Assembly (NCBI GenBank): GCA_013306675.1
Contig: JABLUY010000008.1
Location: forward strand, 260,112 to 315,329
DNA length: 55,218 nucleotides
Reading direction: 5' to 3'
Source: Thraustochytrium sp. TN22
Lineage: Eukaryota; Sar; Bigyra; Thraustochytrida; Thraustochytriidae
In this document: positions 10,845 to 39,367 of the stretch, in pieces
How the letters are laid out: every line of letters begins with the position of its first letter
Numbering within the stretch: position 1 is the first letter of the stretch
Notes under the pieces: model-generated
The model's database searches: none
Seen by the model: only the letters and a program-made list of their open reading frames with translations
What the model was told of the DNA's origin: nothing
Program-made: the position numbers and the translations under genes

Positions 10845-13800
10845 ATGCGACCTACCGCCGGCAGCGGCGAGCACGGGCAGTTGCCCTCGGCGACGGGCGA
10901 GCGGAGGCTACCCACGGCGCGCATGTCGTCGTCGTCGTCGTCATCGTCGTCGGCGGCGTCGGCGTCGTCGGCGGCGGCCTCGGCCGCTGCATCGCCAGCG
11001 CCAGGGCTAAGGGGTGCGGCAGCCAAGCGCGTGCTCCCAGTGCTCACGGCGGCGTCCAAGTTCAAACGCGGCGCCGCGCTCGCCGGCAGCGCCTCCAACC
11101 TGGGCAGCAGCCGCAGGCTCAATGCGCTAGAAGCTGCCACGGCGCTAGAGCCACCCGTGGCGCGCCGTCTGCTCTACGGCGACACGGTCTCCGTGAGCAA
11201 TGTCGAGGCCTCCGGCGCGGACGGCGGCCTGCTCTTCGGTGAGGGCGTTCAGAGCCCTCTCGTGGGCCTCTTTCACCCAGACGATGATAACCTGGGGCCA
11301 GCGCCCGAGACCAACCTAGACGAGCTCGAGCAGCCGCCCGCCATCATCCGCGCGCAATCCTCTCAGAGCCAAGAGTTCATGAGTACCGTCATCGATGCAG
11401 ATACAAGTCCGGGCGCCGAGGCCGAGGACGATACGCTCCCGGGCCGCCTTGACGGCGTGGCACGCGACGACTTCCTTGGCGACGAGGAGAGCGGCGACCT
11501 TTTCGAACCGCCCCCGGCACGCCTCATCCCGAGCCGCACGAACCTGCAGTTCCGCATCTGCCCGCAACTGCGCTACGAGATGCAAAACAGCCTGCGCGCC
11601 GCTTCCAAGGGAGGCGCCGGAGCCTACTCGGCCGCACAACAGGCCTATCTGCGCGAGCGCTCCCTTCGCGAGGAGTCCGACAATCGCGAACTGCTCGTGC
11701 ACTCTCGCAAGCGCAACGGCCGCGCGACCGCATCCAACCATCGCCGCCGCGCGCTGCGCTACGGTCAGACCATACAGCTACAGCACGTGCAGAGCGGCAC
11801 CTTCCTCACCATGGCGCCCAAAAAGGTTGCGCGCATCCGTAAGGACTGCCTCGTTGTCGACCTCGTGCCGGGAGGCTCCGAGGATTCATGGTTCCAGGTG
11901 CTCCCACGCTTCAAGGTGCGCGCAGAGGGCGCTCCGGTCTTGGCCGGAGACCAGGTCTTTCTGCGCTGCGTCAAACACCAGGACTACTCACTCAGCTTCA
12001 CCAACGAGGCCGTGCCGCGCCCGCTCCAGCCCAGCGGCTGCCTCGGCCTCTCCGCGCAGCGTGCTCTGCGCGAGGTCAATCTCAGCCTCGAACCGACCAG
12101 CTGGCGCTTCCACCTGTCGGGCCGCGGCTACGACCCAGAGGCGCCCGCGCAGCTTTACGACGGCCAGGCCATCTATCTCTTTCACCCTGAGGTCGAGGCC
12201 CTGCTCGGCGCCCCGTACGACTACGCCGCCTGCGACGCGCGATGGTATGCCGCCGAGCGTGACGCGCCTGTTAAGCCGGACTCCAGCGTCTGGATTGTCG
12301 AGAACGCCGCCAACGTACTTGAGTGGCAGCAGGCGGCAGGCAGCCAGAATGGCACGACGGCCACGGCGATCGCCGCAGCCTCAGGGGCGACCCCAGCCGC
12401 GAACGCCAGTTCTTCTTCCAGTGGCCCGGCGCCGCCTCCGGCGGGCAAGGGTCGGCGCCGCAACGTGCTAGCTGCCATGCGCAACTATTCCTTCAACGGC
12501 AGCTCCACGTCCATCGGCCAAAGCTCCAACGGCGACGTATCTGAGCGCTCCGCCACCAACCTCGCGCAGGCGGCCGCCTCGCGGGCCGTCACGCGGGCGC
12601 AGAATGTCGGCGCCATCGCCTGGGGCACGCGCATTGCGCTGCGACACCTGGCCACCGGCCGCTACCTCTCGGTGCGCCCAGCTTCGCTCGACGCCGACCG
12701 CATCGAAGAGCTTGGCACCATCGACCTTGAGCTCACGGCAACCTACCGGGGTATGCTATCCTCCTTTTCCTTTGCGCCGGCCGTCAGCAAGGTCACGGGC
12801 GTCGTCTCTGACTCCTCCTCGTCCGACACCAGCGACGATGAGGACGTGGCCGGGCCTTACCTGCGCTCCGGCGCCGCGGCATCCTCCTCCTCCTCCCCCT
12901 CCCCCTCTCCCTCCATGCCACGCGGCAGCAAAGCCGGCCTGCGCTTCGATCAGATGACCTGCTTCCTCACGTACGAGCCCCCGACACCCATCCTCTTTGG
13001 CGAAGGGACCGCTGTGCGGAGGTTTTATCTGCACGCGCCGCCCGACGGCTCCGTCTGCTTCTCGCTCCTGCGTCACGACCAGGACGCCCTGGTCGGCATC
13101 CCGGCGCCGCTTGCCACCGTGCGCGCGGTCGAGACCGTCAGGGGCTGGACGCAGACCGCCATGGAATATGCCTCCCTGCTGCGCACGCGCATCCTGTATG
13201 CCGGCGACGCGCCCACTGACGAACAGCGCGCAGCACGCTCCGACACCGAGGAGTCTGCACAGCAGGGACCGGCCGCGCCCGTCTCAGCCGAAGCCGTGCA
13301 CAGGGAAACCTACGTGACGCGGGCCGAGGTAACACCCATGATCCAGGCTCTCTTGGAGCTCCTTGCCTACTGCCGCGGCGAGGAAACCTTTGGCGCCGCG
13401 GATGCGCTTACGCACGCTTTCGCCGAGTCCGAGATGGACGACGAGCACGTACGCGCGGAATTGGTGGACTATGAGCTCAGCGTGGCGAGCCGCGTCTTCC
13501 ACGAGCCGCTCGCACCATCCAAGCTCGCCATTCAGGTCCGCCTCGTCTCGCTACGCCTCTTTGAGGTGCTCTTTCATATCTGCACGACGCCCGAGACCGT
13601 GCGAAGCGGGAGCAAGTGGGTAGGCATGCTCCGGTCCACGCCATTTCGCTGGGCCTACTTCATTCACCGCCTCTGCTTCCGCGCCGTCACGGCCATCTTC
13701 CAGAACGCCGGCGAGCTCGAGCTGGCGCTCACCGACACGCAGCTACCGCGCCCACCGCGTCTCTACTGCGACTTCCTCTACGCGCGCCGCTCTGCCGCTA

Positions 13801-16800
13801 CCTTTGAGCCCGTCCTCATGTCCGTCGCGCGTCAGCTGTCATGCGGCGTCGGCGCCGTCACCATGTTGCGCCGTCTCGTCAACAACAACGAGATGCTCCT
13901 GGACACCAAATTCAACGCGCCACAGATCGCCTTCTTGGTCAACCTCATCCGAAAGCATGGTCCACAAAAGCGCTACGTCGACCTTCTCGCCTCGCTGTGC
14001 ACCTGCATGGACCTCTCCGAGGGCACGACCAAGTGCGTCGTCTCCAATCAGGAGCTCATCGTCCTCGAGATCATGCGCAACCGCCCCGAGCAGGTCCTCC
14101 TAGACGTCGCCTTTCGCGTGGACGAGGACATTTCCGTGTCTGCGAGCACCTCCAACAACAGCACCAGCACCAGCACCAGCGACAACAACGAGCAGGTGGA
14201 GGAGGACAAAGCGGACATCAAGCAGCGCGTCCTCGGTGCTGAGATGCTTCTCGCTCAGAACGAGGAGGGCAGCCCGCGCATCCGCCACGGTGCAATCCTC
14301 GTGGCCTGGGACGTCTCGTTGCTCCGCGAGACGCCCGAAGATATAGGGTGCAGCCCCGAGGGCATTGTTCGTGACCCGAACGGCCGTACCTGGGTCACCG
14401 TTGGGGCCCTCCAGGACGCCGGTTCGGAGCTGTCCGAGCAGCTCTGCGGCTACCTGGACGGCCAGCTGCAGCTCGTGACCAAGCTCGTGGAGGGCCGCTC
14501 CTACAACTGCATCGAAATCCTGGAGCAAGTCTACAGCTTCGAGCTCCTGGTCATGGGTGCCAGCAGCACCAACCTGCGCGCGTCGCTGCGCGCAGCATTT
14601 TGCGAGCTCCTCGGCGCGCTCTACGTGGAGCGCTACCCGCACGCGCGCATCTCGCTGCCGCGCCGCGTCCATTTTCGCAATAGCAAGCTTGCGGTCCCGG
14701 GCGTCTACGGGGCATGGCGCTCCATGCCACGCTGCCTTACGCTTTCTGCCACCGGTCCGGAGCTGCCGTCGAGCGCCGAGCCTGCGAGCGGTATGCGCGC
14801 CTCGCGCGTCCTCGCGCCCCTCCCAACACCCTTCTTCACCGTCACAGGCCCAGACAAGTTCATGCTCGCGCGCCTCGTGGTGCTCACCACACTCGACACC
14901 TACGCGGCCTTCGTAGACAAGCGCCGGCGCCAGCAACAGGCGCAGCAGGAGCATGCGCAACAGACGGAGCACTCGCCCAAGTCGAAGTTGGCGGTCGACG
15001 AAGGCCCGGCCAGTCCCAAGCTTGGGCCCGCGCCATCGCTTCGCGACCGCCGAGCTGCGTCCACTCCAGCGTCGAACCCCCCAGCAGCGGCCTCGCGTAA
15101 ACCCGGCGCCTTCGCCGCAGCTGCAGCCACGGCCGCTCCCGTCAACGGCGGAAGCGGCGACCGTGGCGGCACCCCACGTCGCGACCGCATGATGTCCATG
15201 CAGCGCGGCAACAGCAAGGCGCTCCTGGCGGGTCGGCTCATCGGACTTGGGGAGAAGCTCCTGCTCATGGGCTTCAACGCAGAACCGGGCCAGATTGTGG
15301 CACTTTGCCGCGCGGGCATCCGTCTTCTTGAGTTCGCCGAGGACGACCCATTGCGGCGCAGCGAGCTCGTGCTGCGGCAGCGCATCTGCGAGCTTCTCAT
15401 CAGCACGTCACGCTTCGAGACGGACCACGCCGTCTCGCTGGTGCTGGACGCTTTCGAGGAGAGCGGCACGGACGCGCGCATTTGCGAACTCGTGCGTCGC
15501 GTCGAGTGCGGCTTCGCTGGCCACCAGACGACCAAGGCCTCCTCGTGGGACCTGTACGACCTTGAGAAGCAGCTCACACCCTCGTCCCTGACCACCAGCG
15601 TCGACGAGCTGCTCGTGAACATGGTCATTCGCTGCGGTCAGCAGGTGGACCCGTCTCTCGGACTGTTTGAGCGCGCGCTCGACCTCTTCGTGATCGAACA
15701 CAGCCCCGGATCGCGCCTCCTCAAGGCGCTCCAGGCCACCCTTGTAGTGAGCTCCTCGGCGGGCCTGCGCATGTACAGGGCAATCCTGTCGCGCAGCTCG
15801 GTCCTGGGGAATGACCTGCAGTCGTACGCGGTGTGGGGCGTGGCCAACGCGTTTTCTGGGATCGGCTGGACCGTCGTGGCGCGCGTCAAGTCGACGCTGC
15901 GTTTTCTCACTCGGGCCTGTGAACAGCACCGGCCCATCATTGAAGCGCTCGACGTGGCGCGCTGCGTGCTCATGGCGCTGCGGCTACAGGGCGATCCGAG
16001 CGACCATCTCTTGGAGATTAAGCGCCTCGCGCTGCGCTTCCTTGTGGTGTATACGGAGGACAGCGTCGACAGCCAGCTCTTTGTGTTCGAGCATCTTGCG
16101 GATCTCGAACCCCTGCTGGACGTGGACGCCGACACTGTCGTGGAGACGCTATCGTGCATCGTGCATGGCAACCGCAAGATCTGCACCGAATTCCCGCTGC
16201 GCATCATCTGGCGGCTCGTGAGCTCGGTGCGCCTCGACTGCGACATGCTGAGGCTCTTCGTGCTCCTCGCGTCGGTGAACGGCGTGGGTATTCGCCGCAA
16301 CCAGGATGCCATCGTGCACGCCATCATGTCGGACGAGACGGCAGTGGCAACCGTCGAGGAGCTCGTTGCTGCCTTTGGGCCCAGGACGAGCGATCCAGCC
16401 AGTGTCCTCCTCCTGGAGCTCTTCTCCGCCGTGACACGCGGGCGCAATCCTTACTGCGAGGCCAAAGTGCAGTCTCTTCTCCCGCTCGACGTGGTTCTGG
16501 ACCTGCTCGTGCCGCGAGACGGGCCTGCAGAGATGCACAACAGCTTCCGCTGCGTGCTCCTGCGCTTCCTCGCGGACACCTACCTGGACACTGGCCTTGC
16601 AGACGCCGGCACGGTGCAGCAGACGCCGCGCATCGTGCTCCTGCTGGAAACGATCCTCGCGGAGTTCGAGCCGTTTCTGGCGCGCTGCCGGGCCGGTGAT
16701 GTCGTCTCGGACACGTTGAGCAACTTCCGTTCGCTCGTCTTTCACGGGTTCCTCTACACGCTGCGATCATTTTTCCACAGCACCTTCGAGTACCATACGG

Positions 16801-19800
16801 CGCCGCCGGCGGTGCTTGCGGTGCGCGCGCCTCTGCTGACGGTGGTGCAGGAGGTAGCTGACTTCGCCGAGACCCCGAGCGAGCAGCACCTGGCGCGGCG
16901 TGCGCGTAGCGGCCTCCTTAGGTCCATCAGCGCACACCGGCGCAAGCGGCGTACCGAAGAGGAGCGCCGGCAGGCCGCCAAAGCAAATCGCGAGCGGCGC
17001 GTCCTGGACCGCGAGCGGCGCAAGCTCGAGCGTCTCGAGCGGCGACAGCTGCGGTCCAAGGAGCGGCGGCGCGGGCGGCCGACGCAGGAGAACTGGTTGG
17101 TCTTTGTGCGCTTCCTCAAGGACGACGCGCATATTCGCCAGCTCATCCACGATGAGCAGCGTGTCATGATCCAGTCCATTTACGATGCCTGTGGTAGCCT
17201 CGAGACCATCTCGCTTTTTCTGCGGTCGCTGATGGACTACGTACGCGCTTCATGTCGCGAGCACAACATCCGGCACCACGAGGTCGAGGAGCCTTTGGCG
17301 CGCCGCTCGGACCAGACGGCTCAGCAGGTGCTCACCATCCTGCAGTTCACGCTTCAGTACATTGCCGACCTGGATGTGGCGTGGCGGTCCAAGGACGTGC
17401 CGCGCGAGGAGCTGCAGGGCGTAGCGCAGCGCCGCCTCGCGAGCATGGGCGCGGTCGACGTTGCCTTCCAGATCCTCTGCGTGCAAACCAGCCCGGCGCT
17501 CTCGCGCAAGGCCGTGCAGACACTGATCGCGCTGCTCGAGGGCGGCAACCGCGACGTGCAAGAGCGCCTCTACGAGCTGCTCATGTCGCCGCGCGGCGAG
17601 CGCTTCTTCGGCCGACTCTCGGCAGTCTTCTCGCGCATCGGCGAGGCCGCCAAACTGGAGATCAAGCTCGAGAAAAAGCGCCGCATGCAGGACGAGGCGC
17701 TGCTGGCGCGCGACGATGGCGACACCGCCTCGGTGCTCTCCGGGTCCTCGTCGGTGGTGGCCGACTCCATCGGCGTCACCTCGCTTGGGACGGGGTCGTC
17801 CAAGGCGAGCTCGACGACGTCTTCGGCCTCGGCGTCCGAAGACGAGGGCGAGGAGGACGAGGACGAGGAGGGGGACGAGGATCACGTCGAGGACGCCGCT
17901 GAGGACGCCATCTCGGCGGGCCACGGCGCCGACGCTGCAGATGACACCTACAATGATCAAGGCGCGGACGAGTCGGACGGCCATGAATGTGTGGAGCGCG
18001 CGCGCAAGGCGCTGGACGTGGCAGCCCTCTTCGAGCTGCAGGCGCCGCGGTCGCGGCATAATCTTCGGCGCAAGCGCACGCAGGCAGAGCTGGAGCAGAA
18101 GCAAGACGCGCAGGACATCGTCAAGCTGGTGCGCTTCCTGCAGCTCTGCATGGAGGGCCACTTCCTGGACATGCAGAACCTCCTGCGCGAGCAGGGCGAG
18201 GCAACTGTGTACCGAACAAGCACGAACGTGCTGCTGCTGGCCGTGGAGCACGCACGTCTCCTCACCAAGAGCGAGGACATTTTGGCGTGCAGCCGTGAGA
18301 ACTCAATCCGGCAGCTCATCGGCATCTATGATTTTCTCATCGAGTCGATGCAGGGCCCGTGCGAGGCAAATCAGGAGCTCCTCTCGAACCCAATCCATCG
18401 CGTTGTGGAGACTATCAAGATGGTGCTCCTGTCAAACTTTACACTGAGCGACACCTTTCTAAATGAGGCGGACATGGGCAAGATCACTGCGGACGACGAG
18501 CGCGACGCGGCGTGCGTGCTGGAGCTCAAGGCCAAGGCTGTGCGCACCCTGTGCGGCATGCTGGAAAGCCGCGAGGACACGCGCGTGCAGGAGGCTCTGG
18601 CGCGGGAGCTGGGGCTGGATACCTTTTACGCGCGTCTCGTGGAACTGCACCGTGCCGTGGAGTACTACGAGATGCAGGGCCGGCCCGAAGAAGTCGTCAT
18701 GCCCTCTCTGGAGGCCGCCGCCGACACAATCACGGTGCTAAGCGCGTTCACGGACGTGCACCGGGCGCGCGGCGCGGCGCGCGCGGAGCCCCACAAGGCG
18801 GAGGAGCATAACGCGCTGGCATACTTTATGGAGGTGGTGCGCAGCGTGGAGATCCAGTTCAAGGGCGCCGTGCACCGTTGCTACTATCCGAAGCCGCGCG
18901 CGCTCAACTTTCTCTCTCACTCGGCGCGTGTGAGCCTTATGCAGCACATCAACGTGGAGGACCCGGACCTGCGGCTGCGCGAATTCCTGGACGGGGCCAA
19001 GTCGCTGCTGGACGAGGTGTCCCAGGTTCAAAAGGCCTCCGAGGCACTGCCCATTGAACGCCTGCTCATGGACATGGACAGCATCCGGTACATGTCGTTC
19101 GCGACGGCAGTGTGGGCGAACTTTTTGCTCCTCTTCAGCTTCACGGGTGACGCGAATCTGGCGTCGCCGCTCGAGGTGGGCCCGGCGCCGACCATGTGGT
19201 CGCTTCTTTGGGCTGGCAGCGGGCCGGAGCTCGCGCTGCGCGTGGTACAGCTTCTCACGCTGGCGCAAATCGCCATGATGGGCGTGCTGCGCGGACTGGA
19301 CGTTCTCATTCACGTGCCAATTCGGCGCAAGAAGATGGAAGGCAAGGTGGCGTCCGCGCGCGCGCGCCTGCGGCAGTTCGCCAAGCGCGAGGACGGTGTC
19401 ACAGACAGCAGCGACGCAACCATGGTGGTGGCGGACGCCTTGGCGCAGCCGCCGGACAAGCGCGAGGACCGCCTCGCCCGGTCGCTGGCCATTGGGTGCG
19501 CCGTGGCGAGCCTGCTCCTCATGGTGCGCTTCGGCTGGCGTGTGCTAATGAATGCGCGGTACCTGCAATTCGTGCAATGGTGGATGCTGGCGCAGGGCGT
19601 CCTTCTGGCGCGTGCGGGCCGGCGCGCCGGAGGGGCCGTGGGTGGCTTGTCCGAGGCGTTCGGGGTCTGGTATTGCTGCCTTTACGACGTGCTTACAACG
19701 CCGACTTCGCTCTTCCAGCTCGCCTCGCTCCTTGCGTGCTGGCGCGGACTGCACCTCGGCCCGAGCGCCGTGTATTTGATCGTCCCACTCTTCGACATTG

Positions 19801-20708
19801 TCTTGAGCAGTGAGACGCTGCAGAACGTGGTGCAGGCAGTGCGCGTACCATTTCGCAGCCTGGCCATGACCTTCATCCTGCTCTCCATCACGCTGTACGG
19901 CTTCTCTTTTGTGGCGCTGGTGGCCTTTCGGGACCACTTTGTGGACGAGACGACGGGCGAGAGCCGCTGCGGCGACCTGCTCTCGTGCTTTCTGCTCATT
20001 CTCGACGTCGGTCTGCGCGTGGGCGAGGGCCCGGCGGCGATGATGGTGAAGCTGCCAACGGACCACGCGCAGGCGTTGCAGCGCCTCGCCTTCGACCTGG
20101 GGTTTGTCATCATCGTGTCCATCTTTTTGCTGAACGCGGTGTTTGGCGTGCTCGTGGACCAGTTCTCGAGCCTGCGCGAAGCGCTGCAGAACCGGCACGC
20201 GCAGCTCAACAACTCCTGTTTCATCTGTGGGCTGGGCCGCGCCGAATTCGACGCCATATCTTTCCAGTACAAGCAGCGGCAGGACGAGCTGGCCCGCTTT
20301 GCGGGGCGCAACGGTCTGCGCAAAGAGTTCAAGGGCGGCTACGTCTACCATGTCACGCAGGAACACAACATCTATGACTACCTCGGCTTTATTTTGTACC
20401 TGGAGGCGAAGACGACCACCGAGTGCAACGGACTGGAGAGCTACGTGCTGGCGGAGCTCGGCAAGTCCTCGGGGGATGCCGTTTCATGGATCCCGGCGGG
20501 CCATGCCATGGCGCTAGGCGCCCGCAGTTCCGGCGAGCGCTCGATCCGCGCCGCTGTGGACCACCTTGCGTCCAGCGTGGCTCGCTCCCAGCGCTCCGTG
20601 CTGCGTCGTTTGGAGCAGCTCGAGGCCAAGCTGCACGCCATGCACGGAGGCGGTCCGGATGGGGTCGCCTCTGAAGCGCCATCCACGCCGCCTCTCAGCG
20701 CAGCATGA
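10845..20708 (+). CDS. ITPR: Inositol 1,4,5-trisphosphate receptor-type calcium release channel
   Basis: 3287 residues without a detectable intron; animal receptors have about 2700. Domain order by eye: low-complexity N terminus (1-280), IP3-receptor N-terminal beta-trefoil (about 300-480, LRYGQTIQLQHVQSGTFL), MIR domain (about 585-780, GTRIALRHLATGRYLS), RIH helical repeats (about 990-1090 and 1580-1850), a basic coiled coil (about 2030-2085), an acidic Ser-rich insert (about 2290-2370), the RIH-associated domain (about 2420-2570, with MQGPCEANQ at 2502), transmembrane channel (about 2750-3115), and the diagnostic zinc-binding linker CFICG (3125-3129) with H3169 and H3174. It should form a tetrameric ER or vacuolar Ca2+ channel opened by IP3. 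The selectivity-filter region reads GLRVGEGPA (3056-3064) instead of the usual GGGVGD or GGGIGD, so ion selectivity may differ. An alternative start is M27 (10923). Confidence 0.92.
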   Translation: MRPTAGSGEHGQLPSATGERRLPTARMSSSSSSSSSAASASSAAASAAASPAPGLRGAAAKRVLPVLTAASKFKRGAALAGSASNLGSSRRLNALEAATALEPPVARRLLYGDTVSVSNVEASGADGGLLFGEGVQSPLVGLFHPDDDNLGPAPETNLDELEQPPAIIRAQSSQSQEFMSTVIDADTSPGAEAEDDTLPGRLDGVARDDFLGDEESGDLFEPPPARLIPSRTNLQFRICPQLRYEMQNSLRAASKGGAGAYSAAQQAYLRERSLREESDNRELLVHSRKRNGRATASNHRRRALRYGQTIQLQHVQSGTFLTMAPKKVARIRKDCLVVDLVPGGSEDSWFQVLPRFKVRAEGAPVLAGDQVFLRCVKHQDYSLSFTNEAVPRPLQPSGCLGLSAQRALREVNLSLEPTSWRFHLSGRGYDPEAPAQLYDGQAIYLFHPEVEALLGAPYDYAACDARWYAAERDAPVKPDSSVWIVENAANVLEWQQAAGSQNGTTATAIAAASGATPAANASSSSSGPAPPPAGKGRRRNVLAAMRNYSFNGSSTSIGQSSNGDVSERSATNLAQAAASRAVTRAQNVGAIAWGTRIALRHLATGRYLSVRPASLDADRIEELGTIDLELTATYRGMLSSFSFAPAVSKVTGVVSDSSSSDTSDDEDVAGPYLRSGAAASSSSSPSPSPSMPRGSKAGLRFDQMTCFLTYEPPTPILFGEGTAVRRFYLHAPPDGSVCFSLLRHDQDALVGIPAPLATVRAVETVRGWTQTAMEYASLLRTRILYAGDAPTDEQRAARSDTEESAQQGPAAPVSAEAVHRETYVTRAEVTPMIQALLELLAYCRGEETFGAADALTHAFAESEMDDEHVRAELVDYELSVASRVFHEPLAPSKLAIQVRLVSLRLFEVLFHICTTPETVRSGSKWVGMLRSTPFRWAYFIHRLCFRAVTAIFQNAGELELALTDTQLPRPPRLYCDFLYARRSAATFEPVLMSVARQLSCGVGAVTMLRRLVNNNEMLLDTKFNAPQIAFLVNLIRKHGPQKRYVDLLASLCTCMDLSEGTTKCVVSNQELIVLEIMRNRPEQVLLDVAFRVDEDISVSASTSNNSTSTSTSDNNEQVEEDKADIKQRVLGAEMLLAQNEEGSPRIRHGAILVAWDVSLLRETPEDIGCSPEGIVRDPNGRTWVTVGALQDAGSELSEQLCGYLDGQLQLVTKLVEGRSYNCIEILEQVYSFELLVMGASSTNLRASLRAAFCELLGALYVERYPHARISLPRRVHFRNSKLAVPGVYGAWRSMPRCLTLSATGPELPSSAEPASGMRASRVLAPLPTPFFTVTGPDKFMLARLVVLTTLDTYAAFVDKRRRQQQAQQEHAQQTEHSPKSKLAVDEGPASPKLGPAPSLRDRRAASTPASNPPAAASRKPGAFAAAAATAAPVNGGSGDRGGTPRRDRMMSMQRGNSKALLAGRLIGLGEKLLLMGFNAEPGQIVALCRAGIRLLEFAEDDPLRRSELVLRQRICELLISTSRFETDHAVSLVLDAFEESGTDARICELVRRVECGFAGHQTTKASSWDLYDLEKQLTPSSLTTSVDELLVNMVIRCGQQVDPSLGLFERALDLFVIEHSPGSRLLKALQATLVVSSSAGLRMYRAILSRSSVLGNDLQSYAVWGVANAFSGIGWTVVARVKSTLRFLTRACEQHRPIIEALDVARCVLMALRLQGDPSDHLLEIKRLALRFLVVYTEDSVDSQLFVFEHLADLEPLLDVDADTVVETLSCIVHGNRKICTEFPLRIIWRLVSSVRLDCDMLRLFVLLASVNGVGIRRNQDAIVHAIMSDETAVATVEELVAAFGPRTSDPASVLLLELFSAVTRGRNPYCEAKVQSLLPLDVVLDLLVPRDGPAEMHNSFRCVLLRFLADTYLDTGLADAGTVQQTPRIVLLLETILAEFEPFLARCRAGDVVSDTLSNFRSLVFHGFLYTLRSFFHSTFEYHTAPPAVLAVRAPLLTVVQEVADFAETPSEQHLARRARSGLLRSISAHRRKRRTEEERRQAAKANRERRVLDRERRKLERLERRQLRSKERRRGRPTQENWLVFVRFLKDDAHIRQLIHDEQRVMIQSIYDACGSLETISLFLRSLMDYVRASCREHNIRHHEVEEPLARRSDQTAQQVLTILQFTLQYIADLDVAWRSKDVPREELQGVAQRRLASMGAVDVAFQILCVQTSPALSRKAVQTLIALLEGGNRDVQERLYELLMSPRGERFFGRLSAVFSRIGEAAKLEIKLEKKRRMQDEALLARDDGDTASVLSGSSSVVADSIGVTSLGTGSSKASSTTSSASASEDEGEEDEDEEGDEDHVEDAAEDAISAGHGADAADDTYNDQGADESDGHECVERARKALDVAALFELQAPRSRHNLRRKRTQAELEQKQDAQDIVKLVRFLQLCMEGHFLDMQNLLREQGEATVYRTSTNVLLLAVEHARLLTKSEDILACSRENSIRQLIGIYDFLIESMQGPCEANQELLSNPIHRVVETIKMVLLSNFTLSDTFLNEADMGKITADDERDAACVLELKAKAVRTLCGMLESREDTRVQEALARELGLDTFYARLVELHRAVEYYEMQGRPEEVVMPSLEAAADTITVLSAFTDVHRARGAARAEPHKAEEHNALAYFMEVVRSVEIQFKGAVHRCYYPKPRALNFLSHSARVSLMQHINVEDPDLRLREFLDGAKSLLDEVSQVQKASEALPIERLLMDMDSIRYMSFATAVWANFLLLFSFTGDANLASPLEVGPAPTMWSLLWAGSGPELALRVVQLLTLAQIAMMGVLRGLDVLIHVPIRRKKMEGKVASARARLRQFAKREDGVTDSSDATMVVADALAQPPDKREDRLARSLAIGCAVASLLLMVRFGWRVLMNARYLQFVQWWMLAQGVLLARAGRRAGGAVGGLSEAFGVWYCCLYDVLTTPTSLFQLASLLACWRGLHLGPSAVYLIVPLFDIVLSSETLQNVVQAVRVPFRSLAMTFILLSITLYGFSFVALVAFRDHFVDETTGESRCGDLLSCFLLILDVGLRVGEGPAAMMVKLPTDHAQALQRLAFDLGFVIIVSIFLLNAVFGVLVDQFSSLREALQNRHAQLNNSCFICGLGRAEFDAISFQYKQRQDELARFAGRNGLRKEFKGGYVYHVTQEHNIYDYLGFILYLEAKTTTECNGLESYVLAELGKSSGDAVSWIPAGHAMALGARSSGERSIRAAVDHLASSVARSQRSVLRRLEQLEAKLHAMHGGGPDGVASEAPSTPPLSAA

Positions 20709-25292: not shown

Positions 25293-25955
25293 ATGGCGCG
25301 CGAGCAGCGCGACGATGGCGACATGTACGCCATGGGCGGCGCGGTGGGCGGCGCTGCCAGCGAGTACGACGGCTACAGCTACCAGGCGCCGAACCCGTTC
25401 GCGGGCATCGGCGCCGTGAACCCGGCCACGCTCTCGCCCATGTTCGGGGCGCAGGGCGGCGGCATGGCGGGCGCGGGCGCGGGCGCGTACCAGCCCGAGT
25501 ACCTGTACTATGAGCCCAAGGCGTGGTATGAGCGCATGTGCTACAACAGCGGTTCCGCGTACCTTGGTGGCATCGGCCTGGGCGGTGCCTACGGTGTGGT
25601 GAACGGCCTGCGCACGGCGCCGAGCTCCAAGTTCAAGATCCGCGTCAACAGCGTGCTCAACAAGAGCGGCCGCTACGGCTCGCGCTTCGGTAACGCACTG
25701 GGCTCGATCGCCATGATGTACTCGTGCGTCGAGGCTGCCACCGAGTACGCGCACCTGGAGGACTACGTGCCGGGCGCTGACGAGTACGTCACGCCCGTCA
25801 TCTCCGCTACGCTCACTGGTCTGCTGTACAAGTGCACGCAGGGCCCCAAGACCATGGCGCTCGCCGGCCTGCTGGGCGGCGCCGCCTTCGCCGGCTTCAC
25901 GGGCGCGCGCAGCCTTTGGGCGGCGCGCAACTCGGGCCGCGGCCTGCTCTACTAA
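25293..25955 (+). CDS. TIM23: Mitochondrial inner-membrane import channel TIM23
   Basis: 220 residues of the Tim17/Tim22/Tim23 family, the protein-conducting subunit of the presequence translocase. Residues 1-75 are a Gly/Ala/Tyr-rich intermembrane-space segment. The core begins at about 83 with GSAYLGGIGLGGAYGVVNGL, the glycine-rich first helix of the family, followed by NSVLNKSGRYGSRFGNALG (second loop and helix), a third helix with ISATLTGLLYKCTQGPK and a fourth with LAGLLGGAAFAGFTG. The spacing and the GxxxG patterns fit Tim23 better than Tim17 or Tim22. The ATG at 25293 is the first in frame. It ends convergently with the GTPase-fusion gene about 600 bp away. Confidence 0.88.
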   Translation: MAREQRDDGDMYAMGGAVGGAASEYDGYSYQAPNPFAGIGAVNPATLSPMFGAQGGGMAGAGAGAYQPEYLYYEPKAWYERMCYNSGSAYLGGIGLGGAYGVVNGLRTAPSSKFKIRVNSVLNKSGRYGSRFGNALGSIAMMYSCVEAATEYAHLEDYVPGADEYVTPVISATLTGLLYKCTQGPKTMALAGLLGGAAFAGFTGARSLWAARNSGRGLLY

Positions 25956-26207: not shown

Positions 26208-26562
26208 CTATCGTAATTTCGAGAAGCTGCTAGGGCTGCTACAGCTTCTCATGCTCTGCTGCTCATCAGCATCGTCCGACACAATCGCCAGAATGCACGT
26301 TTTCACGTCTCCCTTGCACTCACTCACTCCTTCGTCCGCGTCGTCCACTTCGATGGGCTCTAGCCCCTCCCTGTGCCACTCGATGGCCTCCAACAGCGCG
26401 TTTTGCAAGGACGTGTGCGAGCTGTCGCCAAAACGACGGCGAGCCCCGCTCCGAAAGGGTCTGAAGTCGAGTCCAAGGTTGGAGCGGTCAGGCTGGGCAC
26501 CAGCGGGAGGGCGGGGCGCTGCGCAGACGGGAGCGCCGTCATCGTCTCCGCCTCACTGGTAG
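26208..26562 (-). pseudogene. Decayed duplicate of the 3' end of the GTPase/TRAF/WH2 gene
   Basis: The stretch at about 26335-26560 is a diverged direct copy of 26563-26790, the last part of the neighbouring gene. It encodes QNALLEAIEWHREGLEPIEV, against NALAQAIERRREALEPIEV in the live gene, then runs on for about 43 codons to a stop at 26208. One base is missing relative to the live copy near 26450, so the upper part is out of frame. It lies just behind the live stop codon. It may be the ancestral C terminus left behind by a terminal duplication, or a second exon: the live end contains CA/GTGAGG, a possible splice donor. Confidence 0.6.
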
Positions 26563-28934
26563 TCCGCGCCGTCCACTTCAATGGGCTCTAGCGCCTCCCT
26601 GCGCCGCTCGATAGCCTGCGCCAATGCGTTGTACAGCGGATTGGAGGACGCGTGCGGGCTGCTCGCGCCGGACGACGGCGAGTCGCGGTCCGGAAGGGTC
26701 GTGTGCCGGAGTTTAGAGCGGTCAAACTCGGCGATGCTGGCCACCAGCGGGTTGGCGTGGCGCTGCGCAAGCGCAGGCGCCGTTGTCGTCTCTGCTGCCG
26801 CCGTGGAGACCGCCTTGAGCTGGGACCGATCAAAGCCGGCAATTCCCGCAACCAGCGGGTTCGCCGGCCGGCCCGAGCCGCCGACCGGCGCAGGCTCTTC
26901 TTGAACGGCCTTGAGCTTGCTGCGGTCAAAGCCGGCAATGCCCGCCATGAGCGGGTTCGCAGGCTTGCCATTGTTAGTCTGCGCCGGCGCTGCCTCGGGC
27001 TCCACCTCCGAGGAGGCGGACTTAAGTTGAGTGCGATCAAAGCCCGACACGCCGGCCAGGAGCCCCTTGGGCATCGGGGCTGCGCTGGCGGCGGCATCCG
27101 TCGGAGACGTCGAGGTGGTTGTCCTCCCCTCCGTGGCAGCACCGGCGAGACTGTCCTCGAGGGCCCCACCGCCCGTGGCGGAGCTCGTCAGGGCACTCTC
27201 GGCGACGGCCGCCGAGGGCGGCGGCAGTGGCATCTCCGTCGGCTGTGCCTGGCTCACGGTGATGACCTTGGGCAGCAGGAGACCCGGCGCCAGGCCTGCG
27301 TCGGCCTCGACGTCCAGGTTGGCGAGGTCGTCGTCGTCCTCCTCCTCCTCCTCCTTGTCCTCCTCGTCGTCGAGAGGGCCGGCCGCGCGCACCGCGGAGC
27401 CGTCAGCCTCGAGTTGCGCCTGAGCGAGGCGCGAGGCGGCGTGGCGCAAGCCGACCAGCACCGGGTCGGCAGTCTGCGAGTGGGTGGTGTTGGCAAAGGC
27501 CGAGGCGCGCTCCTCGTCCTCGTCCGGGTCAGCCTCCGAATTGGTCTCTGAGACCGCCGGGCTGGGCGGGCGCGAGGGCCTCGGAATGGCAGCCAGCACC
27601 TCATCAGGCGGCAGCGTGAGGAGCACGGCAAGGCGTTCCGCATCGGCCGTCGCCATGTCGAGGTCAGAGCGCTGGCGCAAGATGGCAGCCGCCTCCGGGC
27701 CAAACTGCGCGTCGCCCCAGTGCACGAGGTCAGCGTGCGTCCACAGCGGCTGCGGGAAGATGCGCCAGCGGTCCTCGTGCTGCGCCAGCAAGCCCTGCTC
27801 AACGAGCTCGGCGCAGCCGGGGCACTCGACGAAGCGCCGCGGGCAGTCGCCCTTGACGTGGCTCTGCGCGTCGCGGATGCACACCTTGCTATCGCAGCCG
27901 AGTGGGCAGGCCACAAGGCGCAGCTCGCAGATGGACGACACGTGCTCATGGATTTCCGAGGCGCGGTCCAGCAGAATGGCGCCGCAGCCGAGCGGGCAGC
28001 GTGTCTCATTTGCGCGCAGCGCGCGGTCCCGCGAGTTCGCGCGCAGCTGCACGCGCGGCACGCGGTCAAGGCCCACGCGGTGCGCGGCGGCCGCCACGTG
28101 AAGCGCCTGCACCTCGGTCCACCCGCTCGAAAGTACCTGCAGCAGCGCGTCCGAGGACAGGGCGTCGGCGCCCACTGCCGGTACGCCCTGGCGGCGCATC
28201 CACGCCAGCGTGCGCTCGCGCGCCGCGCGCTGCTCCTGCAGGCGGTCGCGCTCCTGCTTGTTGAACCAGGTGCGCAGGCGCGCCCACAAGCCGTCTGGCG
28301 GCGCCTCGGGCTCGAGCGCACCAAAGGCGGCCGCAGGCGGCGGCAGTGCTGCCGCGAGCGGCGGCGGTAGCGCCGGGATGCTGCCCTTGCGCAGCGCGTC
28401 CGCGGCCATCTCCGTGAAGGCGCGGCGCAGCAGCTCGGGCCCCATACCGCGGCAAGTGGTCTCCAGCAAGCGCGCGCCAAGGCGCGACGCGGCGCTGCGC
28501 GCCTCGTCCAGCGAGACGGCCCTGCGCCGCGTCAGGTCAATCTTGTGCGCCAGCACCGCACACACCTGGTCCACTGGCCCGACCTGGCGCACGAGCTCGA
28601 ACCAGTAGAAGACCTCCTCGAAGGACGTCCGCGACGTCACGTCAAAAACAATCAGCACGAGCTGCGCGCCGTTCAGGTAGGTGGCCGCCACGGCGTCGCT
28701 CGCGCCCTCCAGGCCAGCCGTGTCCCACACGGCCAGCTCCACATCCTCGCCCGCGACCTTGGCGCGCCCCTTGTGCAGCTCGCACTCGAAGAGCTCCGCG
28801 CTTAGGCTCCACGCCTTTTGCGCCGCGCCGCTCCCGCCGCCGCCGCCGCTGCTGCTGGCGGCCACCAGCTCGCGCGCGACGCTGCTCTTGCCTGCGCCGG
28901 CGGCGCCGCACACCGCCACGCTCGCCGCGCGCAT
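26553..28934 (-). CDS. Rab-like GTPase / TRAF-type zinc finger / WH2-repeat fusion protein
   Basis: 793 residues from the ATG at 28934, which places the start right at the GTPase beta-1 strand. Residues 1-183: small-GTPase fold with P-loop GAAGAGKSS (10-18), switch II DTAGLE (71-76), HKID (130-133, in place of NKxD) and ETTC (158-161). Leu replaces the usual catalytic Gln of DTAGQE, and no clear switch I Thr is seen. Residues 310-390: TRAF-type zinc fingers (RCPLGC, ACPLGC, ECPGC with following His/Cys). An acidic linker covers 465-545. The tail holds four WH2/beta-thymosin-like actin-binding repeats of pattern NPLxAGIAGFDRSKLKAV (about 623-639, 660-677, 692-709, 728-744) and a fifth diverged one (765-782). 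Fusing a Rab-like switch, a zinc-finger scaffold and actin-monomer binding suggests a membrane-to-actin adaptor. In-frame ATGs continue to 29621 through Ala/Arg/Gly low complexity. Confidence 0.8.
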   Translation of the reverse strand: MRAASVAVCGAAGAGKSSVARELVAASSSGGGGGSGAAQKAWSLSAELFECELHKGRAKVAGEDVELAVWDTAGLEGASDAVAATYLNGAQLVLIVFDVTSRTSFEEVFYWFELVRQVGPVDQVCAVLAHKIDLTRRRAVSLDEARSAASRLGARLLETTCRGMGPELLRRAFTEMAADALRKGSIPALPPPLAAALPPPAAAFGALEPEAPPDGLWARLRTWFNKQERDRLQEQRAARERTLAWMRRQGVPAVGADALSSDALLQVLSSGWTEVQALHVAAAAHRVGLDRVPRVQLRANSRDRALRANETRCPLGCGAILLDRASEIHEHVSSICELRLVACPLGCDSKVCIRDAQSHVKGDCPRRFVECPGCAELVEQGLLAQHEDRWRIFPQPLWTHADLVHWGDAQFGPEAAAILRQRSDLDMATADAERLAVLLTLPPDEVLAAIPRPSRPPSPAVSETNSEADPDEDEERASAFANTTHSQTADPVLVGLRHAASRLAQAQLEADGSAVRAAGPLDDEEDKEEEEEDDDDLANLDVEADAGLAPGLLLPKVITVSQAQPTEMPLPPPSAAVAESALTSSATGGGALEDSLAGAATEGRTTTSTSPTDAAASAAPMPKGLLAGVSGFDRTQLKSASSEVEPEAAPAQTNNGKPANPLMAGIAGFDRSKLKAVQEEPAPVGGSGRPANPLVAGIAGFDRSQLKAVSTAAAETTTAPALAQRHANPLVASIAEFDRSKLRHTTLPDRDSPSSGASSPHASSNPLYNALAQAIERRREALEPIEVDGADYQ

Positions 28935-30233: not shown

Positions 30234-31343
30234 ATGGCCGCGGCGGCGGGCGCGGGCGGCGGCGCGGCGGCGGCGGCGGCGGCGATGGCGGCGGCTCCGG
30301 CGGCGGCGGCGGCGGCGGGCTCCGGCGCGGCGGGCGGCGGCGCGGCGGCGCGGTCGTCCAAGGACGTGCTCTTCGAGGCGCTGCTGGCGGCGCCAGACCT
30401 GGACCTGGACAAGCTGCGCGCCGCGAGCTGGACGCGCGTGCCGGGCCGGCTGCGCGGCGCCGTGTGGCAGCTGCTGCTCGGCTACCAGCCGACGAAGCGC
30501 GACCGGCGCGAAGCGACGCTGCAGCGCAAGCGACAGGAGTACTTCGACTACCTGCCCATGTACTATAACAACGCGGACGCGGAGCGGTCCGAGGAGGACC
30601 AGAAGATGCTGCGGCAGATTTTGCTTGACATCCCGCGCACCAACCCGGGCATGCCCCTCTTCCACTGCGACGAGGTGCGCCGCAGCTTCGAGCGCATGCT
30701 CTACATCTGGGCGATCCGCCATCCGGCCAGTGGCTACGTGCAGGGCATGAACGACCTGGTCACGCCTTTTTACGTGGTTTTTCTCGCACACCACATTAGC
30801 GGCGGCGACATCGAGAGCATCAACGCGTACGACGCGTCCACGGTGGAGCCGACCATTTTGCGCGCCGTCGAGGCCGACTCTTACTGGTGCCTCACCAAGC
30901 TGCTCGATGGCATCCAGGACCATTACACGATGCTGCAGCCAGGCCTGCAGCGCATGTTTTACCGGCTGCAGGGCGTCATCCAGCGCATTGACCGTCCGCT
31001 GCACGACCACCTGGAGCGCGAGCACGTCGACTTCAACCAGTTCGCCTTTCGTTGGATGAACTGCCTGCTCGTGCGCGAGCTCGAGCTTGGCTCCATTGTA
31101 CGCCTTTGGGATACCTACCTGGCTGAAGAGCGCGAAGGTTTTGACACCTTTCACGTTTATGTATGCGCCGCGCTGCTCGTCACGTGGTCCGCCGAACTGC
31201 AGAGGATGAGTTTTCAAGACCTCCTCATCTTTTTGCAAAATCTGCCCACCAGCGACTGGGACGTGGGCCGCATCGAGGAGCTGCTGGGTCAGGCATTCAT
31301 CCTCAAGACTCTTTTCAACGAGTCTCCGAGTCATCTCGGCTGA
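30234..31343 (+). CDS. TBC1D22: TBC-domain Rab GTPase-activating protein, TBC1D22/Gyp1 type
   Basis: 369 residues. An Ala/Gly-rich N terminus (1-40) is followed by the TBC domain (about 62-350). Both catalytic fingers are present: ILLDIPRTNP with D132 and R135 (IxxDxxR), and SGYVQGMND with Q170 (YxQ). Other signatures are RGAVWQLLLGY, RLWDTYLAE and FHVYVCAALL. The sequence YLPMYYNNAD and the GGDIES segment resemble the TBC1D22/Gyp1 branch. It stimulates GTP hydrolysis by Rab proteins, typically at the Golgi for this branch. It is transcribed divergently from the Rab-like GTPase fusion. The Ala-rich start is ambiguous, since M18 is also possible. Confidence 0.9.
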   Translation: MAAAAGAGGGAAAAAAAMAAAPAAAAAAGSGAAGGGAAARSSKDVLFEALLAAPDLDLDKLRAASWTRVPGRLRGAVWQLLLGYQPTKRDRREATLQRKRQEYFDYLPMYYNNADAERSEEDQKMLRQILLDIPRTNPGMPLFHCDEVRRSFERMLYIWAIRHPASGYVQGMNDLVTPFYVVFLAHHISGGDIESINAYDASTVEPTILRAVEADSYWCLTKLLDGIQDHYTMLQPGLQRMFYRLQGVIQRIDRPLHDHLEREHVDFNQFAFRWMNCLLVRELELGSIVRLWDTYLAEEREGFDTFHVYVCAALLVTWSAELQRMSFQDLLIFLQNLPTSDWDVGRIEELLGQAFILKTLFNESPSHLG

Positions 31344-37624: not shown

Positions 37625-39367
37625 TTAGTTGAGAATGAGACGGCGGACGCCAGTGGCATCGTCGGCGTAGTTTTCGGCCCAGTCCGGAAAGGAGCTGAGG
37701 TCGCCAAAGACGTTGCCAGTGACGAAGGGGGCAACGATGGCGAGGAGGACACCGAAGCACTTGAGGATGGCACCACCCTTGATCATATCGAAAAAGCTGA
37801 TGCGGCCAGTGGAGAATGCGAGAGCCATGGGCGGGGTGGAGGTGGGGAGCAAAAAGGCGAGCGTGGCGGCGGTACCAGCCGGGAGCGCGAGCAGGAGCGG
37901 GTGAATACGCTTCTGCACGGCGATCTCGAAGAGGATGGGCAGAAAGACGGTGACGGCGGCCACGTTGGAGATGAGCTCAGTGCAGATGGCGACGAGAATG
38001 GCGACGATGGAAACGAGAGAGATCGTGGAGAGGTCGGTGGCCGAGGCGACGAGGGAGCCGACCTCGGCGGAGAGGCCACTGGAGCCGATGGCCTCAGCCA
38101 TGGAGAAGCCAGCGCCGAGCAGGAGGATGACTCCCCAGGGCAGGCGCTTAAAGGCGCTGACCTCAACGAGCATCTTGCCCTCACGCTGGGAGCTGGGAAG
38201 CCAGAAGACGATGATGCCGCCAATAACGGAGACGATGGCGTCGTTGGTGTAGGCGCTCCAGGAGTTGTTCGAGTCGGCGTCCTCGCAGTCGTACTCGTTG
38301 GTGTACTGGTCGTCGCTGCAGTAGCCGAGGTAGGGCGTGATCACGTAGCCGGAGATGAGCCAAAAGAGGACCATGAGGGAGAGGATGGCGCAAAGGATCT
38401 TCTCGTCACGCGAGACGGGGCCGAGGGCGCGGCGCTCCTGGTTGAGGCGGTCCTGGCTGAGCTGCAGGTCGATGCCGCGCAGGTAAACAAAAGTGATGGA
38501 GGCCCAGGCGATGAAGACCATGATGACGGCGATGGGCGCGGCGTAGCCCATCCAGGTGGCGAAGTTGATGGGCGCCTGCGGGAAGGAGCCGGTGACAAGG
38601 AGCGAAAAGGCGAGGTTGGCGCTCGTGCCGATCAGGGTGGAGCAGCCGCCGCTGGTGGCGGCGAGCGCCACGCCAATGACGGCGGCCTTCTCGAAGCGGA
38701 CGCCGTCCGGAGTGTCGATGCGGCCCTCGAGGAAGCCGCGGATGACGGGCAGCATAAGCACGGTGGTGGCCGTGTTGCTGGCGAACATGGAGATGATGGC
38801 GGTAATGACCTGGAAGCCAAGCAGCACGAACTTGGGCTTGGTGCCGCAGAACTTGAGCGCCCAGAGCGCGAAGCGCTTGTGCGCGAGCGAGTCCTCAACG
38901 GCGAGCACCACCAGGTAGGCGCCGAGGATGAGAAAGGACACCGAGTTGAAGTACATGGAGGCCAGCGAGGACAGCCGGGCGACGCTGGCGAGCGGGTAGA
39001 GCACAACGGGCAGCAGGGCGCTGACCTCAATAGGCACGACCTCGAAGATCCAGAGGCAGACGATGAAGAGAGTGACGGCCAGGGCATCGTTTGCCTTGGG
39101 GTGCTCGTCCGAGAGCTCGATGCTGCCGGCAATGATGGCCAGGATGGGTGCCAGGAAGAGGCCGATCTTCTTGGACAGCGGGAACTGCTTCCAGTAGCCC
39201 TGCGTGAACGTGTACCAGCAGTCCGCGTCGGGCCCCTTGGCGTACTCGATGTCGTCCGAGTCGCCATCGCCAGCGTGGGCGCCGTTCATCTTGAACGAGG
39301 CGCCGGACTCCGGCTGCACGGCGGTGTTCTCATGGACATCCTCGTTCGCGTTGGTCTTGTTGATCAT
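37625..39367 (-). CDS. SLC13/DASS-family anion carrier, copy A
   Basis: 580 residues, about 11-12 membrane helices. Divalent-anion:sodium symporter family, whose members import dicarboxylates, citrate or sulfate. After a hydrophilic N terminus (1-62) come FLAPILAIIAGSIEL, the DSLAHKRFALWAL segment that leads to the first SNT motif (S197-N198-T199), and the second motif ISNV (S467-N468-V469), with LPTSTPPMALAF at about 508-519. These two SNx motifs on inverted hairpins bind sodium and substrate carboxylates in this family. Val instead of Thr in the second motif is common among carboxylate carriers. Di- or tricarboxylates are likelier than sulfate, but the substrate cannot be settled from sequence. 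A paralogue lies 3.8 kb away in the same orientation. Confidence 0.9.
   Translation of the reverse strand: MINKTNANEDVHENTAVQPESGASFKMNGAHAGDGDSDDIEYAKGPDADCWYTFTQGYWKQFPLSKKIGLFLAPILAIIAGSIELSDEHPKANDALAVTLFIVCLWIFEVVPIEVSALLPVVLYPLASVARLSSLASMYFNSVSFLILGAYLVVLAVEDSLAHKRFALWALKFCGTKPKFVLLGFQVITAIISMFASNTATTVLMLPVIRGFLEGRIDTPDGVRFEKAAVIGVALAATSGGCSTLIGTSANLAFSLLVTGSFPQAPINFATWMGYAAPIAVIMVFIAWASITFVYLRGIDLQLSQDRLNQERRALGPVSRDEKILCAILSLMVLFWLISGYVITPYLGYCSDDQYTNEYDCEDADSNNSWSAYTNDAIVSVIGGIIVFWLPSSQREGKMLVEVSAFKRLPWGVILLLGAGFSMAEAIGSSGLSAEVGSLVASATDLSTISLVSIVAILVAICTELISNVAAVTVFLPILFEIAVQKRIHPLLLALPAGTAATLAFLLPTSTPPMALAFSTGRISFFDMIKGGAILKCFGVLLAIVAPFVTGNVFGDLSSFPDWAENYADDATGVRRLILN

What the first reader, a model, noticed from the sequence alone, without database searches (positions are those of the whole stretch)
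26553..28934. A Rab-like GTPase fused to TRAF zinc fingers and WH2/beta-thymosin actin-binding repeats
Seen: one uninterrupted 793-residue frame with GTPase motifs (1-183), CPLGC-type TRAF fingers (310-390) and four or five repeats of the pattern NPLxAGIxGFDRSxLKAV (623-782). Known: WH2/beta-thymosin motifs of the form FDxSKLKxV bind monomeric actin, and several in series can nucleate or sequester actin; TRAF-type fingers are scaffold or ubiquitin-linked modules. I know of no described protein with these three in one chain. Inference: a membrane- or GTP-controlled actin-assembly scaffold, perhaps for the ectoplasmic net or for vesicle movement.
Basis: partly seen in the sequence, partly recalled or inferred. 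Interest (0 to 1): 0.85.

Follow-up and report, generated by a model that had tools for sequence, protein, structure and literature searches.

The report
Rab-like GTPase with WASP-like actin tail
A marine thraustochytrid-type protist carries one gene that appears to join a worn Rab-like switch, zinc fingers and a row of actin-binding motifs in a single protein, a layout that could tie membrane identity directly to actin assembly but has no expression or lab evidence yet.

Summary
A Ras/Rab domain scores E = 4e-19 in Pfam and models as a Rab fold (pLDDT 85). Tandem TRAF-type fingers follow, then a tail with four WH2/beta-thymosin repeats (Thymosin above cut-off; the Pfam WH2 model and the literal published WH2 pattern do not hit).

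Two things were missed. (1) The "fifth repeat" is not a WH2. It fits the published description of the WASP-family C (central) domain, with the same spacing as in this genome's WASH-like protein. A short acidic end follows, with Tyr and no Trp. The tail reads V-V-V-V-C-(a), like a WASP-family VCA. (2) The GTPase is atypical: Leu in place of the catalytic Gln (28 of 28 aligned relatives have Gln), no Thr in switch I, a changed SAK motif, an insert, and no C-terminal cysteine.

Best reading: a mostly GTP-loaded or weakly switching Rab-like head places an actin-assembling tail at a membrane or partner. The architecture is well supported; the mechanism is inferred. No transcripts and no relatives in other eukaryotes could be examined. 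New variant of a known kind.

The parts
26553..28934 (-). whole reading frame, 793 aa plus stop
28380..28934 (-). Rab/Ras-like GTPase domain, residues 1-185
   Evidence: Pfam Ras 4e-19; AlphaFold model pLDDT 85, pTM 0.84; Foldseek best matches Rab4, Rab2, Rab11
28884..28907 (-). P-loop GAAGAGKS, residues 10-17
28806..28808 (-). Ser43, at the place of the switch-I Thr in alignment A3
   Evidence: 28 of 28 aligned relatives have Thr; in alignment A2 Leu48 takes that column; no Thr at all in residues 18-71
28707..28727 (-). G3 motif WDTAGLE, residues 70-76, Leu at the place of the catalytic Gln
   Evidence: 28 of 28 aligned relatives and 6 of 6 own-genome Rab-like proteins have Gln; the 28 were fetched with a pattern that required Q or L
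28536..28547 (-). G4 motif HKID, residues 130-133
   Evidence: Lys and Asp in 28 of 28 relatives; Asn in 25 of 28, here His
27765..27998 (-). tandem TRAF-type fingers, residues 313-390: two complete, a third without its last Cys
   Evidence: zf-TRAF 33.7 bits on the fragment, cut-off 27; 23.3 in the whole protein; Cys/His spacing
27075..27569 (-). acidic low-complexity linker, residues 456-620
   Evidence: seen in the translation; GC3 stays high
27015..27062 (-). WH2-like repeat 1, LLAGVSGFDRTQLKSA, residues 625-640
26904..26951 (-). WH2-like repeat 2, LMAGIAGFDRSKLKAV, residues 662-677
   Evidence: best Thymosin stretch 661-678
26808..26855 (-). WH2-like repeat 3, LVAGIAGFDRSQLKAV, residues 694-709
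26700..26747 (-). WH2-like repeat 4, LVASIAEFDRSKLRHT, residues 730-745
26589..26636 (-). C-domain-like helix LYNALAQAIERRREAL, residues 767-782
   Evidence: published description of the C domain; same spacing in the WASH-like protein of this genome; 8 of 20000 shuffles of the last 45 residues match
26556..26588 (-). short acidic end EPIEVDGADYQ, residues 783-793, Tyr but no Trp
26324..26546 (-). decayed tandem copy of repeat 4, C-like helix and acidic end, beyond the stop
   Evidence: local DNA alignment score 207, best of 300 shuffles 43

Best explanation
One gene encodes an actin-assembly protein with its own Rab-like head. Shown by sequence and model: a Rab-fold GTPase domain, TRAF-type fingers, an acidic linker, four WH2/beta-thymosin-like repeats, a C-domain-like motif and a short acidic end, all in one frame. 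Inferred: the head binds GTP but hydrolyses it poorly, because Leu stands in place of the catalytic Gln, so it acts as a standing docking surface for Rab-type partners or as a slow switch. The fingers bind a partner or help the protein self-associate. The repeats gather actin monomers, and the C-like helix adds an actin contact or touches the Arp2/3 complex, so that filament assembly starts where the head docks. With no prenylation site, the head must reach a membrane through a partner.
For: Domain scores in one frame with high GC3 across the linker. Rab fold. Four hits of a loosened WH2 pattern against 5 of 5000 shuffles with any. The C motif fits the description in PMC3298513 (section 11 read) and has the same spacing as the one such motif in the WASH-like protein of this genome. 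The last 66 residues resemble the tail of a CCDC53/WH2 protein of this genome (L002) that ends in a DEW-type acidic region: score 72, shuffles mean 24, best 47 of 2000. The genome has an Arp2/3 subunit (P21-Arc, 3.2e-62). DTAGLE in Rab25 is said to make it constitutively active (PMC4359700, passage). Nucleators with several WH2 repeats that Rabs recruit are known (SPIRE: PMC11231147 passages; PMC5021521 abstract).
Against: Neither the Pfam WH2 model nor the literal published WH2 pattern hits; the second Lys of LKKV is Ser, Ala, Ala and His in the four repeats. The acidic end is 11 residues and lacks Trp. The C pattern also matches once inside the GTPase (residues 124-142), where it must be chance. 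The C-like helix alone finds no WASP-family chain in the PDB; the control tail of L002 does not either. L002 itself does not match the C pattern, and in the WASH-like protein the C motif lies some 90 residues before the end, not next to it. Nothing shows that the head binds nucleotide or contacts the tail. No transcript and no relative from another eukaryote was examined.
Confidence: 0.5

Rival explanations
1. A monomer-binding scaffold without nucleation: four beta-thymosin-like repeats sequester G-actin or hand it to another nucleator such as WASH, and the C-like helix is at most a weak further contact.
For: The Pfam hit is Thymosin, not WH2; repeats start 37, 32 and 36 residues apart, near the 39 positions of the Thymosin model; the acidic end lacks Trp; the literal published WH2 pattern of WASP-family proteins does not hit.
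Against: Only positions 3-20 of the 39 of the Thymosin model are matched by the best stretch. The C motif shares its spacing with the WASH-like protein.
Confidence: 0.3
2. A pseudo-GTPase scaffold: the Rab-like domain no longer binds nucleotide and serves only as a protein-binding fold. (This concerns the head and is compatible with either reading of the tail, so the odds of the rivals do not add up to one.)
For: Changed switch I, catalytic Gln, Asn of NKxD and SAK motif, and a Gly/Ser-rich insert of 8 residues before switch I; residues 42-47 are the least certain part of the model.
Against: P-loop GxxxxGKS, WDTAG, and Lys and Asp of NKxD are intact; His in place of that Asn also occurs in Rab39B (alignment).
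Confidence: 0.3
3. Two genes, or an unseen intron: the GTPase/finger part and the WH2 tail belong to separate transcripts that lie in one open frame by chance in GC-rich DNA.
For: The region is GC-rich (.66-.75 in the 2-kb windows over the gene), so long open frames are common; the linker is low-complexity; there are no RNA data.
Against: 793 codons open in the same frame with domain hits at both ends and GC3 of .78-.92 through codons 421-660.
Confidence: 0.07

Closest known systems
WASP family nucleation-promoting factors (WASP, WAVE, WASH, WHAMM, WAML, WAWH)
   Same: C-terminal WH2-like repeats followed by a C-domain-like motif and an acidic end
   Different: No WH1, GBD, WAHD or IMD domain listed by Pfam; four WH2-like repeats that miss the literal family pattern; acidic end short, with Tyr and no Trp; a GTPase sits in the chain instead of binding it from outside
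SPIRE actin nucleators
   Same: four WH2 repeats, a link to Rabs and a zinc-binding module (PMC11231147 passages)
   Different: No KIND or FYVE domain listed by Pfam; SPIRE binds Rabs as separate proteins, here a Rab-like domain is part of the chain
Large Rab GTPases (Rab44, Rab45/RASEF, Rab46/CRACR2A)
   Same: Rab domain fused to other domains in one protein
   Different: [quoted passage not shown] here it is N-terminal, with TRAF-type fingers and WH2-like repeats, and no C-terminal cysteine
WAML proteins of Entamoeba
   Same: a fusion that gives a VCA region a membrane-related front end (PMC3298513, passages)
   Different: the front end is an IMD domain, not a GTPase
Multi-repeat beta-thymosins (ciboulot, tetrathymosin; recalled, not looked up)
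   Same: tandem FDxSKLKxx repeats some 32-37 residues apart
   Different: the second half of the Thymosin model is not matched by the best stretch; large N-terminal domains

Membership tests
Rab GTPases | Ras/Rab fold and P-loop | tested here: met
   Pfam Ras 69.2 bits; Foldseek rank 1 Rab4, E 2.4e-15; P-loop
Rab GTPases | catalytic Gln in DTAGQE and Thr in switch I | tested here: not met
   Leu75 against Gln in 28 of 28 and 6 of 6; no Thr in residues 18-71, against Thr in 28 of 28
Rab GTPases | C-terminal prenylation cysteine(s) | tested here: not met
   ends EVDGADYQ; no Cys in residues 694-793
WH2 / beta-thymosin actin binders | sequence motif: hydrophobic helix, linker, LK(K)V/T | tested here: inconclusive
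   For: Thymosin above cut-off, four hits of a loosened pattern. Against: PF02205 not listed, literal published pattern no hit
WH2 / beta-thymosin actin binders | binds G-actin | not testable with these tools
   needs purified protein
WASP family | C domain: three large hydrophobics each separated by three residues, Arg/Lys doublet or triplet, closing hydrophobic | tested here: met
   LYNALAQAIERRREAL; 8 of 20000 shuffles match; the same pattern also hits once in the GTPase
WASP family | acidic A domain with Trp (or another aromatic) near the end | tested here: inconclusive
   4 acidic and 0 basic residues in the last 11, Tyr792, no Trp after residue 600; PMC3298513 section 11 leaves open whether any aromatic is enough
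WASP family | family-specific N-terminal domain (WH1, GBD, WAHD, IMD) | tested here: not met
   none listed by Pfam at E up to 10
SPIRE | KIND and FYVE-type domains | tested here: not met
   none listed by Pfam at E up to 10
TRAF / RING E3 ligases | RING and MATH domains beside the zf-TRAF fingers | tested here: not met
   none listed by Pfam at E up to 10
zf-TRAF fingers | score above the Pfam cut-off of 27 bits | tested here: inconclusive
   23.3 bits in the whole protein, 33.7 bits on the 95-residue fragment

The most novel reading that the evidence does not exclude
A self-contained, Rab-addressed nucleation-promoting factor: a naturally GTP-locked Rab-like head, zinc fingers and a four-WH2-plus-C tail in one chain, so that the switch that elsewhere binds a WASP or SPIRE protein from outside has become part of it; possibly used for the actin-filled ectoplasmic net.
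Probability: 0.25. Interest if true: 0.75.

Novelty: new variant of a known kind. Interest (0 to 1): 0.55.

Why it matters
Small GTPases and WH2-based actin assembly factors normally meet as separate proteins. A chain that joins them would be a natural experiment in how membrane identity is coupled to actin assembly. It would also be a concrete candidate for the actin of the ectoplasmic net: a 2025 Aurantiochytrium proteome study looked for such candidates, and that paper has no occurrence of WH2 or thymosin in its main text (passages read only). [quoted passage not shown]

Tried and rejected
Fold of residues 200-470 from the sequence alone: mean pLDDT 43.8, not used. I suspected by eye a SAM-like domain at about 395-455; Pfam gave no family for that fragment, so it is not claimed. 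Residues 190-310 gave only a chance-level hit (Cyclase, E 0.21).

PDB search with the last repeat plus tail: three hits, YfeA at E 0.61 and 0.66 and a thymosin beta-4/cordon-bleu hybrid at 0.84. PDB search with the C-like helix alone: four designed proteins; with the control tail of L002: two designed proteins, so this test has no power for such short motifs.

The genome search with PF01290 found nothing, not even this gene, so it says nothing about other copies. Viral contigs: 307 stretches matched a pattern, none confirmed. NCBIfam: only small_GTP, 25.2 bits, below its cut-off of 42.5. Metagenome scans were capped at 0 and not asked for.

Read-through of the stop into the decayed copy was considered: the copy continues in the same frame beyond the stop, but one frame in three would, and nothing else supports it.

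Patterns: the loosened WH2 pattern, the gap lengths of the C pattern and the exact C spacing were set by me after seeing the sequences, so their shuffle counts overstate the case.

Papers: searches (2 papers; 0; one found, 15 listed; one found, 12 listed; 83 found, 12 listed; 1; 0) listed none whose title or abstract start shows this domain combination. The one paper has a table in which Ras, zf-TRAF and WH2 are each named as domains found with FYVE domains (PMC2837644, passages); it does not put the three together in what I saw. The library holds open-licence papers only, so this is weak evidence of absence.
Full report
The frame. Minus strand 28934-26553 is open for 793 codons. Third-position GC is high in all 14 blocks, the linker between fingers and tail included, which argues for one continuous coding sequence. 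No RNA evidence was available.

The organism. The window lies in a 37.9 Mb genome of 453 contigs. A PfaA-type PUFA synthase with a 3044-codon frame is present, with a second large frame pointing away from it on the same contig.

The head. Pfam Ras scores 69.2 bits and Roc 44.7. Of 764 PDB sequences matched at E up to 1, the 60 shown are nearly all Rabs, best 57.1 bits. With an alignment of 28 prokaryote relatives AlphaFold gives a full GTPase fold (pLDDT 85, pTM 0.84), and the 50 Foldseek rows shown are nearly all Rab-family chains, with two RalA entries. Against the 28 relatives the P-loop, WDTAG, and Lys and Asp of NKxD are kept. Changed are Gln to Leu at 75 (28 of 28 Gln), Asn to His at 130 (25 of 28 Asn, 3 Thr) and Ser-Ala to Thr-Cys at 160-161 (28 of 28 Ser and Ala). 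The switch-I Thr (28 of 28) falls on Ser43 in this alignment, but on Leu48 in the alignment with six own-genome Rab-like proteins; either way there is no Thr anywhere in residues 18-71. Before switch I there is an insert of 8 residues in the one alignment and 13 in the other. The relatives were fetched with a pattern that required WDTAG[QL]E, and 28 of 51 loci were used. In Rab25, DTAGLE is said to make the protein constitutively active (PMC4359700, passage). [quoted passage not shown] this protein has no Cys in its last 100 residues.

The fingers. CPLGC...H...C at residue 313 and again at 343, and a third finger from 371 that lacks its last Cys. zf-TRAF scores 33.7 bits on the fragment and 23.3 in the whole protein, with a cut-off of 27. 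CEP104_ZnF scores 21.7 on the fragment, below its cut-off of 27.4. No RING or MATH is listed, so a ubiquitin-ligase reading has no support here.

The tail. Four repeats of the form NPLxAGIxGFDRSKLKAV, cores at 625, 662, 694 and 730. They match the Thymosin model above its cut-off but not the Pfam WH2 model, and not the literal pattern published for WASP-family WH2 domains, which does hit the WASH-like protein and L002 of this genome. A CCDC53/SH3-type protein of this genome (L003) has the closely similar NPLLASIQGFSKDKLKHAD (residue 423) and NPLLSSLAGFDKSKLKKAS (459); the Pfam WH2 model covers the first of them, at 21.8 bits in the whole protein (cut-off 23.1) and 24.8 bits in the genome search, and the literal pattern misses both. 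That supports the repeats as WH2-like without proving it.

The C-like motif. The last motif, LYNALAQAIERRREAL, is not a WH2. A published comparison of WASP-family proteins describes the C domain as three large hydrophobics each separated by three residues, then an Arg/Lys doublet or triplet, then another large hydrophobic (PMC3298513, section 11 read). The motif fits. My encoding of that description (gap lengths mine) matches in 8 of 20000 shuffles of the last 45 residues, and in the last 45 residues of 4 of 2000 whole-protein shuffles; it also matches once inside the GTPase, at 124. The WASH-like protein of this genome (WASH_WAHD 33.9 bits, cut-off 24.2, positions 18-87 of 292) has one match, LAEEMRLKLARRQKVL at 490 of 598, with the same spacing, and ends SGWETDG; the motif lies some 90 residues before that end. 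With the exact shared spacing 1 of 100000 shuffles match, but this spacing was chosen after seeing both sequences. L002, a CCDC53/WH2 protein, has a similar tail (score 72 against a best of 47 in 2000 shuffles; the helix part alone 46 against 39) and ends DEEWSDNDEWAL; it does not match the C pattern. The end of the window's protein is acidic but short, with Tyr in place of Trp.

Uniqueness. The whole protein searched against its own genome gives 41 matches. Apart from the gene itself and its decayed neighbour, GTPase matches, finger matches and tail matches lie on different contigs or far apart, so among these matches the combination appears once. Counts in that tool are lower bounds.

A relict. 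Just past the stop, 26324-26546 is a decayed tandem copy of repeat 4, C-like helix and acidic end (score 207, best of 300 shuffles 43). It suggests that the tail has grown by local duplication.

Mechanism. The most likely reading is a Rab-like docking head, probably GTP-loaded most of the time, that brings a monomer-gathering tail to a site of actin assembly; the C-like motif makes an Arp2/3 link possible, and an Arp2/3 subunit gene is present. The thymosin-like rival (sequestering or delivering actin) and a nucleotide-free head are not excluded. The neighbouring gene encodes a TBC RabGAP (160 bits) pointing away from this one; a working link is speculation.

Novelty. Rabs fused to other domains are known, and VCA tails on new front ends are known. 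This pairing, with TRAF-type fingers between, was not seen in the listings (several of them cut to 12 or 15 papers). I file it as a new variant of a known kind, and not as a strict member of the Rab or WASP families, since defining features of each were tested and not met.

Noticed in passing
window 26324-26546 (-): Decayed tandem copy of the last repeat and C-terminal end, just beyond the stop and partly in the same frame.
   Followed up: partly
window 30234-31343 (+): TBC-domain RabGAP gene (160 bits) divergently placed next to the Rab-like fusion gene; the Arg and Gln finger stretches (motifs recalled) seem present by eye in the translation.
   Followed up: partly
window 25293-25955 (+): Tim17/Tim22/Tim23 family gene.
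   Followed up: no
window 10845-20708 (+): 3287-codon frame with IP3/ryanodine receptor domains and an ion-transport domain.
   Followed up: no
window 37625-39367 and 43170-44945 (-): Two genes of the citrate/sodium-sulfate transporter families on the same strand, some 4 kb apart.
   Followed up: no
L002 24-1634 (+): CCDC53-like plus WH2 protein that ends in a DEW-type acidic region: a WASP-like candidate of this genome with no WH1 or GBD listed by Pfam.
   Followed up: partly
L001 34-1596 (+): Tetraspanin-like protein (31.7 bits, cut-off 32.1) with a C-terminal WH2 motif (39.8 bits), an unusual membrane-actin pairing.
   Followed up: no
G000 C393 about 98090-104449 (+): 2672-codon frame with many TRAF-type finger matches.
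   Followed up: no
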